Source: Rickettsia hoogstraalii
GTDB lineage: Bacteria; Pseudomonadota; Alphaproteobacteria; Rickettsiales; Rickettsiaceae
DNA: 64,000 nucleotides
Reading direction: 5' to 3'
NCBI RefSeq assembly: GCF_000825685.1
Contig: NZ_CCXM01000001.1
Span: forward strand, 1,380,050-1,444,049
A model generated the notes under the pieces. The model did not search any database. It was not told the DNA's origin and worked only from the letters and a program-made list of their open reading frames with translations. Within the stretch, counting starts at the first letter, position 1. Each line of letters starts with the position of its first letter. Shown here piece after piece: positions 3,213 to 5,665 of the stretch. Made by a program: the position numbers and the translations under genes.

Positions 3213-5665
3213 AATTTACGTTATCATGGTTAAAACAATTTTTAGAGACATCGGCTTCAGTTACTGAAATAGCCGAAGCCCTAACAGCTATTGGTCTTGA
3301 AGTAGAAGAGGTGATAGATAAAGCGGCAGAGCTACAAAAGTTTGAAGTAGCATATATAGCAAGTACTAAACCTCACCCGTCAGCCGATAAGTTAAAACTT
3401 TGTGATGTTGAGACTAAAAGCGGTAGGCGACAAATAGTTTGTGGTGCGAGTAATGCAAGAGCAGGTATAAAAGTAGTACTTGCAAATATCGGAATAGAAA
3501 TACCAAACGGTAAATTTAAGATTAAGGAATCTATTATTAGAGGTGAAAAAAGCTGCGGTATGCTTTGCTCTGAAGAGGAATTACTGCTAGCTTCAGAGTC
3601 TGAAGGGATTATAGAGCTATCTGAAGATGCTGTAGTTGGAGAGAATTTTACTAAATATTACGGTTTAGATGATCCTATATTTGTTATTAACGTTACTCCT
3701 AATCGTGGTGATGCACTTGGAGTTTACGGTATCGCAAGAGATTTAGCAGCTAAAGGAATAGGAATACTTAAAGAGCTAGAAATCCCAGAAATAAAAAGTA
3801 CATTTACTTCTAAAATGAAGCTTAACGTGCAAGACAAAGAAGCCTGTCCTTTATTTACTTTTAGAGAAATAAGAAATTTAAAAAATAAACCAAGTCCTGA
3901 TTGGTTACGGAAATTATTAAAAAATGTCGGGGTAAAAACTATTTCAAGCTTAGTGGATGTAACAAATTATATTTCTTATAGCTTTGGACAACCGATGCAT
4001 GCTTATGATGCGGATAGGATAAAAGGGGGGATTAGTGTAGCACGTCATTGCGAGAAGCGTAGCGACGAAGCAATCTCAGGACAACAAAATGAGATTGCCA
4101 CGGCTGCTTTGCAGCCTCGCAATGACGCAGTTACTTTCCACGCTCTAAACGGCAAAGAATATTTACTTACCGAAAATGATTTAGCTATAAAAGATGAAAG
4201 CGGTATTCAAGGTCTTGCCGGTGTCATTGGCGGGGCTAAGAGTAGTTGTACTGATAGTACGACTAATATAATACTGGAAGCTGCATGTTTTAATGCTAAA
4301 ATGGTTGCAGCTAGCGGGCGAAGATTTCAAATTGATACGGATGCTAGATATCGTAATGAGCGTAATATCGATAGAAATTTTACGGAAAAAGCTTTAGACA
4401 TAGCGACTAATCTTATTTTGTCAATATGCGGAAATGGTGAAGTGTCGGAAGTAGTGAAATTCGGTGAGAAAGAGCCTCAAAAAAAACCTTTAGATTTTTC
4501 AGCATGCTATTTAGAAAAAATTACGGGAATTAAATTAAATATCAAAGAGATAGAAGCTATATTAAATGAACTAGGATTTATTACGGATGTTAAAGGTGAG
4601 ATTATAAAGGTAATAGCTCCCTCTTGGCGTCATGATATAACTATTTTAGAAGATATAGCTGAGGAAATCGCTCGTATTTACGGCTATGATAAAATAGAAA
4701 GCATAAAATTACCCGAATTAGACCAAGATAATAATAAGCTAAGAGAGCATAAAAGAATATCTAGTTTTAAAAGGATATTAGCAAGCAAAGGCTATGATGA
4801 GGTAGTAACTAACTCTTTTATGAGTAGTGAAGATGCAAAGTTGTTTGCTGAATTAAAAGAAGAGTTATTTTTGCTTAATCCTATTAGCATAGGAGACAAT
4901 TATATGCGTCCTACTATACTGCCAAATTTGTTAAGTATAGTAAGTAAAAATCTAGCACGCTCTATAAAAGATATGGCTTTTTTTGAAGTTGGACCGAGTT
5001 TTATAGATTTAAATACGGAGGCAACTTATTTAACGGCAATTATAAGCGGTTCATATAGTAATAAAAATCCTCATTCGCTTGGACGAGGCTATGATATTTT
5101 TGATCTTAAAGGTGATTTAGAGGTGGTAGTGGATTATGCAGGACTATCTATAGATAAATGTATAGCAACAAATGGGACAGCATTGCCACAATATTATCAT
5201 CCAACTAGAGCAGTAAATATAGGGCTTGGTAAAAATTTATTAGGTCATTTGGGACAGATACACCCTAAAATCTTGAAATATTACGATATTAATCAGGAAA
5301 TATTTGCATTCGAGCTAAATATTACGAATTTGCCGTTGATAAAAGCTAAATTCGGTAAAAGAGACAAATTTGCAGTATCGGATTTCCAAGCTAATTTTAG
5401 AGATTACGCATTCATTGTTGATCAAGATCATAGAGTTGGTGAAATAATATCATATATAAATAATTTTAATAAAAAGCTTGTCAAATCAGTTATATTATTT
5501 GATATTTATAGCGGTGATAAATTACCTGAAGGTAAAAAATCTATAGCGGTTAAAATAGAGCTACAAGCAGATGATCGGACATTATCTGATACTGATTTAA
5601 ATTCGTTCAGTAAAGATTTAGTTGCTGCCATCTCGCAAAAATTTCAAGGAACATTAAGAGAATAA
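3209..5665 (+). CDS. pheT: Phenylalanine-tRNA ligase beta subunit with inserted palindromic element
   Basis: PheT binds tRNA-Phe and edits misactivated tyrosine. Visible parts are the N-terminal tRNA-binding OB domain (about residues 40-150, HPSADKLKLCDVE), the B3/B4 editing region, the B5 domain and the C-terminal FDX-ACB domain. The oddity is an insertion at residues 279-307 (RHCEKRSDEAISG... to ...QPRNDA) that is exactly a family A palindrome in an open frame. Removing 29 codons (87 bases, with a CA repeated at both edges) rejoins GISVA to VTFHALNGKEY, as in other bacteria. The gene stays open for 818 codons, so the host protein tolerates the extra peptide, presumably in a surface loop. 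dnaN follows after 4 bases. Confidence 0.97.
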   Translation: MKFTLSWLKQFLETSASVTEIAEALTAIGLEVEEVIDKAAELQKFEVAYIASTKPHPSADKLKLCDVETKSGRRQIVCGASNARAGIKVVLANIGIEIPNGKFKIKESIIRGEKSCGMLCSEEELLLASESEGIIELSEDAVVGENFTKYYGLDDPIFVINVTPNRGDALGVYGIARDLAAKGIGILKELEIPEIKSTFTSKMKLNVQDKEACPLFTFREIRNLKNKPSPDWLRKLLKNVGVKTISSLVDVTNYISYSFGQPMHAYDADRIKGGISVARHCEKRSDEAISGQQNEIATAALQPRNDAVTFHALNGKEYLLTENDLAIKDESGIQGLAGVIGGAKSSCTDSTTNIILEAACFNAKMVAASGRRFQIDTDARYRNERNIDRNFTEKALDIATNLILSICGNGEVSEVVKFGEKEPQKKPLDFSACYLEKITGIKLNIKEIEAILNELGFITDVKGEIIKVIAPSWRHDITILEDIAEEIARIYGYDKIESIKLPELDQDNNKLREHKRISSFKRILASKGYDEVVTNSFMSSEDAKLFAELKEELFLLNPISIGDNYMRPTILPNLLSIVSKNLARSIKDMAFFEVGPSFIDLNTEATYLTAIISGSYSNKNPHSLGRGYDIFDLKGDLEVVVDYAGLSIDKCIATNGTALPQYYHPTRAVNIGLGKNLLGHLGQIHPKILKYYDINQEIFAFELNITNLPLIKAKFGKRDKFAVSDFQANFRDYAFIVDQDHRVGEIISYINNFNKKLVKSVILFDIYSGDKLPEGKKSIAVKIELQADDRTLSDTDLNSFSKDLVAAISQKFQGTLRE
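4043..4129. repeat. Family A palindromic element inserted in frame in pheT
   Basis: The arms CGTCATTGCGAG and CTCGCAATGACG match the intergenic family A copies. The unit with its edge duplication is 87 bases, i.e. 29 codons without a stop in the pheT frame. This is a Rickettsia palindromic element inside a coding sequence. Confidence 0.93.

What the first reader, a model, noticed from the sequence alone, without database searches (positions are those of the whole stretch)
4043..4129. Palindromic repeat adds 29 residues to the essential pheT
The sequence shows a family A palindrome in an open frame inside PheT, with a CA repeated at both edges; removing 87 bases restores the normal alignment. 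Rickettsia palindromic elements in coding genes are known (Ogata and co-workers), but this family (arms CGTCATTGCGAGG) in pheT should be checked. It implies that the repeat can be translated in this frame without stop and that the editing subunit tolerates it.
Basis: partly seen in the sequence, partly recalled or inferred. Interest (0 to 1): 0.72.

Follow-up and report, generated by a model that had tools for sequence, protein, structure and literature searches.

The report
Known Rickettsia palindromic repeat inside pheT
A short palindromic DNA repeat of Rickettsia sits in frame inside the gene for the phenylalanyl-tRNA synthetase beta subunit and probably adds a floppy surface loop; this insertion was published in 2013, but the same spot carries different repeat families in different Rickettsia.

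Summary
An 85-base palindrome of a dispersed family (46 arm matches in the window, 0.27 expected) lies in frame in pheT. An insert is absent at this site in 59 of 59 PheT loci from other genera of the family and present in 22 of 23 genomes of the genus, so it is an insertion. AlphaFold2 makes it a disordered loop (residues 283-306) in the B3/4 domain.

It is not new: PMC3767692 (2013) lists RPE-7 in pheT of four Rickettsia, and its figure legend names the alignment and structure model.

Corrections: removing 87 bases leaves 5 native residues missing (net gain 24), and CA on both edges occurs in 1 of 7 copies of this type, so it is no target duplication.

What I add: the site holds four repeat families across 23 genomes (A 7, B 11, C 3, D 1, none 1; assigned by eye). 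B sits in remnants of A. The main clade needs 4-5 family changes. The frame is kept while the peptide is nearly unconstrained (pN/pS 1.29 and 0.61 against 0.17 and 0.20).

The parts
3209..5665 (+). pheT, phenylalanyl-tRNA synthetase beta subunit, 818 aa
   Evidence: ORF list; matches 7n8y_B, 4p71_A and 3pco_B over nearly the whole length; Pfam tRNA_bind, B3_4, B5, tRNA_synthFbeta, FDX-ACB
3842..4432 (+). region coding the B3/4 domain, residues 212-408, that holds the insert
   Evidence: Pfam PF03483 residues 212-408, profile 1-174 of 174
4043..4127 (+). palindromic element of type A (most likely RPE-7), 85 nt; begins at residue 279
4043..4054 (+). left outer arm CGTCATTGCGAG
4116..4127 (-). 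right outer arm, CGTCATTGCGAG on the minus strand
4070..4078 (+). left inner arm GCAATCTCA
4090..4098 (+). right inner arm TGAGATTGC

Best explanation
This is a copy of a dispersed Rickettsia palindromic element (RPE-7 type, a CGTC-tagged palindromic repeat) that lies in frame in a beta-turn of the PheT B3/4 domain. The mRNA is translated straight through it, and the extra residues form a disordered loop that the enzyme tolerates. The site was invaded in or before the common ancestor of the main Rickettsia clade, with loss of about five native residues, and has since been occupied by several palindromic families, with the frame kept because broken pheT is selected against. Shown here: insertion versus empty site, membership in a dispersed family, frame retention, weak constraint on the peptide, predicted disorder. 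Inferred: translation, near-neutrality, the RPE-7 name, and the route of arrival (non-autonomous; no Y1 transposase found in this genome).
For: Dispersed family: 46 vs 0.27 expected in the window, 628 arm matches in the genome. Empty site of 28 residues in 8 of 18 loci of Rickettsia and near relatives, in G020 (1 of 23 of the genus), and 59 of 59 fetched loci of other genera of the family have 30-33 residues where the window has 56. Insert present without stops in the main frame in 22 of 23 genus genomes, 50-72 residues between the marks. pN/pS of the insert 1.29 (6 of the 7 A copies) and 0.61 (7 of the 11 B copies) against 0.17 and 0.20 for the rest of PheT. AlphaFold2: residues 283-306 pLDDT below 50, between strands 275-279 and 309-312, mean pLDDT 85.4. 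Pfam B3_4 spans the insert. Published precedent for the same gene. PF01797 (Y1 transposase) 0 of 1 in G000, with 5 of 14 control genomes ringing.
Against: No peptide evidence was available, so translation through the element is inferred. Of 42 complete A copies of this genome that I read (14 in the window, the rest from 30 loci, not a random sample), 7 are open in the pheT frame and 8 in the matching frame of the other strand, so an in-frame landing is not the rule. The model has pTM 0.60 and an alignment of 29 rows. Which family came first is not settled, and ages cannot be read from divergence, because elements differ less than synonymous sites would predict in part of the pairs at pheT and also at a second gene.
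Confidence: 0.9

Rival explanations
1. The segment is a native loop of Rickettsiales PheT that happens to resemble the repeat.
For: A longer segment is found at this place in 22 of 23 genomes of the genus.
Against: 0 of 59 fetched loci of other genera of the family have it; 3pco_B (E. coli by recall) has only a short turn there; G020 inside the genus is empty; the DNA belongs to a family of hundreds of copies.
Confidence: 0.02
2. The insert has been recruited: the loop has a selected function in PheRS (stability, partner binding, editing control).
For: Present in 21 of 21 main-clade genomes and in G017.
Against: Peptide weakly constrained (pN/pS 1.29 and 0.61), predicted disordered, and sequence and family differ between species. 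Retention could also come from the lack of a precise excision route (inference).
Confidence: 0.06
3. The element is not translated: the ribosome or a processing step skips the hairpin, and frame retention is incidental.
For: Strong hairpin, z = -6.07.
Against: 22 of 22 insert-bearing genes keep the frame without stops at the insert although 35 of 42 A copies read in this genome are closed in that frame. No bypass signal was looked for beyond Rfam (0 hits in 3000-6000).
Confidence: 0.03
4. One ancient insertion merely diverged into what look like different families (one of two options in PMC3767692), without overwriting or a second invasion.
For: The families share GTCAT...ATGAC ends; [quoted passage not shown]
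Against: B and C are dispersed families of their own (B pattern in 23 of 23 genomes; C pattern in 22 of 23; D not searched). B follows an exact A-left remnant at pheT in G003, G006, G013 and G019; the exact junction of the pattern searched occurs at 7 places in 23 genomes, 3 of them pheT. G017 has a D insert while its sister G020 has the intact native turn.
Confidence: 0.15

Closest known systems
RPE-7 in pheT (R. japonica RJP_0449 and orthologs; PMC3767692, Table 1 and legend of Fig. 2 G-I)
   Same: Same gene and same kind of element in frame; the paper says that the inserted segments it modelled, PheT on 1b70B among them, are solvent-exposed.
   Different: The paper gives 108 bp for the R. 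japonica insert against 85 nt of palindrome here; its table compares six species and has RPE-7 in pheT of four, no typical RPE in two, while 23 genomes here show four families and an empty site.
RPE-4 and RPE-6, extended RPE-4 (same paper)
   Same: Coding palindromes with frequent ATGAC; different groups at the same site in orthologs.
   Different: Listed there for other genes, not for pheT.
CGTC-tagged REP repeats (PMC3733652)
   Same: CGTC/TGTC ends, paired units, partly intragenic, no dedicated transposase known.
   Different: The paper assigns intragenic R. conorii repeats to RPE-4 and RPE-6; the family consensus sequences are in a figure that is not held.
RPE-1 coding elements (Ogata and co-workers; recalled and cited in the papers read; the one original looked up was not held)
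   Same: In-frame palindromes in Rickettsia genes.
   Different: Other and longer elements, according to PMC3733652.

Membership tests
Rickettsia palindromic elements | Dispersed palindromic repeat of about 100-150 bp with many copies | tested here: met
   628 arm matches in G000; 42 complete copies read, 85-121 nt. The pheT copy is the shortest of the 42 and below the quoted length range.
Rickettsia palindromic elements | Can lie in an ORF without breaking the frame | tested here: met
   818-aa pheT frame; 22 of 22 insert-bearing genus genes open at the insert
RPE-7 | Match to the RPE-7 profile | not testable with these tools
   No RPE profile or consensus at hand. Name inferred from the gene in PMC3767692 Table 1 and from a table row of PMC2267715 that I read as published length 99 and 223 copies in R. 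conorii (column heads not seen).
CGTC-tagged REP | CGTC or TGTC at the end, A-T pairs first in the stem | tested here: met
   CGTC-ATTGC...GCAAT and its mirror, by reading; criteria
CGTC-tagged REP | No dedicated transposase beside the repeats | tested here: inconclusive
   PF01797 0 of 1 in G000; other transposase classes not searched
RAYT-mobilised REP | Y1 tyrosine transposase in the genome | tested here: not met
   0 of 1, controls ring in 5 of 14
Transposon insertion with target duplication | Short direct repeat at both edges, kept in orthologs | tested here: not met
   CA on both sides in 1 of 7 pheT A copies

The most novel reading that the evidence does not exclude
The pheT turn is a palimpsest: one codon position of a core enzyme has been refilled at least four to five times by different palindromic families (A, B, C) within the main Rickettsia clade, each time in frame, with B nested in A remnants, and was separately invaded (D) in a neighbouring lineage whose sister is empty. 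The turnover would work by exchange between dispersed repeats that share GTCAT...ATGAC ends rather than by fresh transposition, which would explain why different RPE families occupy the same site in orthologous genes.
Probability: 0.5. Interest if true: 0.5.

Novelty: already known. Interest (0 to 1): 0.33.

Why it matters
The insertion itself is a published case of a coding repeat. The wider survey bears on a question that PMC3767692 left open: are such sites hotspots for different repeats, or one old insertion that diverged? At pheT the answer looks like both: one old insertion in the main clade, later overwritten by other families, plus an independent insertion at the same turn elsewhere. 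If that holds for other genes, these loops are natural records of how selfish palindromes add peptide to conserved proteins.

Tried and rejected
Native loop: rejected by empty sites. CA as target duplication: rejected (1 of 7). Element as an Rfam RNA: 0 hits in 3000-6000 at gathering scores. Gene conversion from a gene 8-10 kb upstream whose A copy is the nearest non-pheT relative (84-89% in seven relatives): not supported; of 5 genomes that have both copies, the in-genome pair is the closest in 1 (G022, 71 of 85 against 65-70). Recent exchange of the A copy between the window's genome and the rhipicephali group (1 of 85 differences against pS 0.136-0.154): not claimed, because the control, the same element in that upstream gene, can be as close (1 of 85 against 0.245 for G005/G014). 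Pairs with fewer differences than pS predicts at P < 0.05 (pairs not independent): 13 of 21 A pairs and 19 of 28 B pairs at pheT (8 of the 11 B genomes used), 11 of 21 pairs at the upstream gene; the remaining pairs fit pS. Flank identities are partly thrown off by indels (G022 left, G007 right; G010 and G007) and are not used. Families A to D were assigned by eye; no profile was built. The ancestral family is undecided: in the main clade 5 changes if B came first, 7 if A. With R. tamurae (G021) placed outside, which its weak support (62.6/72) allows, the whole tree needs 6 (0 of 2000 label shuffles reach it), which I take as 4 in the main clade after subtracting 2 for G017 and G020.

Full report
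What is there. The window holds pheT at 3209-5665 on the plus strand, between ORFs that I read as pheS and dnaN. Pfam finds five PheT domains and the closest solved structures are PheRS beta subunits. At 4043-4127 lies an 85-nt palindrome in frame. The arm CGTCATTGCGAGG occurs 46 times in the window with up to two mismatches (0.27 expected; 0 of 100 shuffles reach it) and 628 times in the genome with up to one mismatch. The element is a double palindrome: outer arms of 12 bases, inner arms of 9, RNA fold -43.1 kcal/mol, z -6.07. Of 14 complete copies that I could pair in the window, only this one lies in a gene that I recognise. Two others fall in open frames of 102 and 175 residues that I did not search (the longer one runs antisense into pheS), and 11 in no open frame of 100 residues or more.

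It is an insertion. In 18 loci of Rickettsia and near relatives, 10 carry extra sequence at this place and 8 have 28 residues between the flanking marks; one distant bacterium has 29. In the genus of the window, 22 of 23 genomes carry an insert and one (G020) has 28 residues. In the family search 82 of 85 genomes have a PheT match; 23 of the 85 are the genus, 59 of the other 62 have a match, 3 have none. I fetched all 59: 59 of 59 have 30-33 residues where the window has 56. Many of the named loci are the same genomes as G handles (for example equal contig lengths of L001 and G009, L003 and G021, L004 and G002), so the counts must not be added.

The insertion is not perfectly clean. The window has 52 residues between the marks, the empty site 28. 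Taking out 29 leaves 23, so about five native residues are missing and the net gain is 24. CA on both edges is found in 1 of 7 copies of the same type.

Where it sits in the protein. The insert starts 15 residues after His264, which is invariant in the 29-row alignment and aligns with a His of 3pco_B (that this is the E. coli enzyme and an editing-site residue is recalled). AlphaFold2 with that alignment gives mean pLDDT 85.4 and pTM 0.60; residues 283-306 fall below 50 and lie between strands 275-279 and 309-312. A floppy loop on a beta-turn of the B3/4 domain is the natural reading. Fold comparison was not available.

How it evolves. Within six of the seven A-type copies the insert has pN/pS 1.29 against 0.17 for the rest of PheT; within seven of the eleven B-type copies 0.61 against 0.20. 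The peptide is nearly free to change, but 22 of 22 inserts have no stop and keep the frame. Of 42 complete A copies of this genome that I read, 7 are open in the pheT frame and 8 in the matching frame of the other strand, so the coding copy is not typical.

Different families at one site. Reading the inserts, type A (CGTCATTGCGAG...) is in 7 of 23 genomes, type B (TGTCATCCCGCGGCTTGACCGCGGGATCC..., often decayed) in 11, type C (TGTCATTCCCGC...) in 3, type D (TGTCATACCCGCGTAGGCGGGTATCC...) in 1, none in 1. B and C are dispersed repeats themselves: the B pattern (up to 3 mismatches) has 1 to 110 matches per genome in 23 of 23 genomes, the C pattern 0 to 164 with at least one in 22 of 23, reversed controls 0. 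D was not searched. B follows an A-left remnant CGTCATTGCGAGGA, exact in G003, G006, G013 and G019 and decayed in others; the junction searched as a pattern exists at only 7 places in 23 genomes, 3 of them pheT, so it is not a property of B. R. australis (L004) has C followed by ATGACAACAATGACG, which looks like the right ends of B and of A (my reading). On a tree of pheS, pheT without the insert, dnaN and leuS (dnaN missing in two genomes and partial in three, leuS missing in G018, pheS partial in G018), the main clade needs 5 changes of family if B came first and 7 if A did; with R. tamurae moved the whole tree needs 6, which leaves 4 for the main clade. G017 (D) and its sister G020 (intact native turn) imply a second, separate insertion at the same turn, since a clean return of the native residues is unlikely (inference).

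What I could not settle. The A copy of the window differs from that of G012 at 8 of 85 places while pheT synonymous sites differ at 0.536, and from G009 and G010 at 1 of 85 against 0.136 and 0.154. This suggested recent exchange. But the A copy in a gene 8-10 kb upstream of pheT in seven relatives (an RND-type transporter by my reading of the peptide; not searched) can behave alike (1 of 85 against 0.245 between G005 and G014), while other pairs at both loci fit the synonymous rate. I therefore draw no age from this. That copy is the nearest non-pheT relative (84-89%), but the pair within one genome is the closest in only 1 of 5 genomes with both. In the 17 kb fetched at and upstream of pheT in the window's own genome I found no such gene.

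Mobility. No Y1 transposase (PF01797) was found in this genome (0 of 1; 5 of 14 controls ring), in line with the statement that CGTC repeats lack a dedicated transposase (PMC3733652; abstract and other passages, section 15).

What is known. PMC3767692 (passages, section 12 in full) lists RJP_0449, phenylalanyl-tRNA synthetase beta, with RPE-7 in R. japonica, R. conorii, R. africae and R. felis, and no typical RPE, though an insertion exists, in R. prowazekii and R. typhi; its Fig. 2 legend names PheT alignments and a model on 1b70B (figure not held). It says that such sites may be hotspots or may descend from one insertion. PMC2267715 (passages) has a table row that I read as length 99 and 223 copies for RPE-7 in R. 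conorii, which fits type A. The one original paper of Ogata and co-workers that I looked up was not held. Searches listed 17, 10, 7 and 6 papers; among these titles and the passages that I read only PMC3767692 treats pheT inserts, and most subscription journals are not covered.

Verdict. The finding is correct in substance and already published. The part that may be new is the turnover of repeat families at one codon position across the genus.

Noticed in passing
L086-L092 (upstream of pheT in seven relatives), L096: A gene 8-10 kb from pheT, RND-type transporter by my reading, carries an 85-nt A copy in the same reading frame; it is broken into several frames in at least one relative (L079), and in G001 (L096) the site shows B nested in A ends.
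   Followed up: partly
L180-L183 (LeuS of G002, G001, G014, G015): LeuS has extra segments near residue 230 in G014/G015 and near 675-685 in G001/G002, so a neighbouring synthetase gene is also invaded.
   Followed up: no
PheT of L013, L017, L016, L010, L007: PheT carries other inserts at other places in relatives: near residues 13, 190, 446, 460 and 660.
   Followed up: no
L062 and L077 (G001 pheT): The last 40 or so residues of PheT are not in the main frame: the main match ends near residue 782 and a further match lies in another frame.
   Followed up: no
window 7583-7701, 30749-30868, 39386-39506, 41970-42089, 50184-50301: Longer A copies of 118-121 nt share an AT-rich inner palindrome in place of the usual spacer, perhaps terminator-like or a nested second element.
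   Followed up: no
L085:9360-10496, L085:6662-8149, L085:2162-3109: ORFs that I read as MurG, MurD and a cytochrome oxidase subunit in the window's own genome contain stretches that look like other coding palindromic elements (by eye).
   Followed up: no
window 4128-4139 and the same place in relatives: The bases just after the insert exist in at least two versions (CAGTTACTTTCC and TAGCTAAATTCC) whose distribution does not seem to follow the species tree (by eye).
   Followed up: partly
pheT inserts and the A copy of the upstream gene: In 13 of 21 A pairs and 19 of 28 B pairs at pheT and in 11 of 21 pairs at the upstream gene the element differs less than pheT synonymous sites predict (P < 0.05, pairs not independent); unexplained.
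   Followed up: partly
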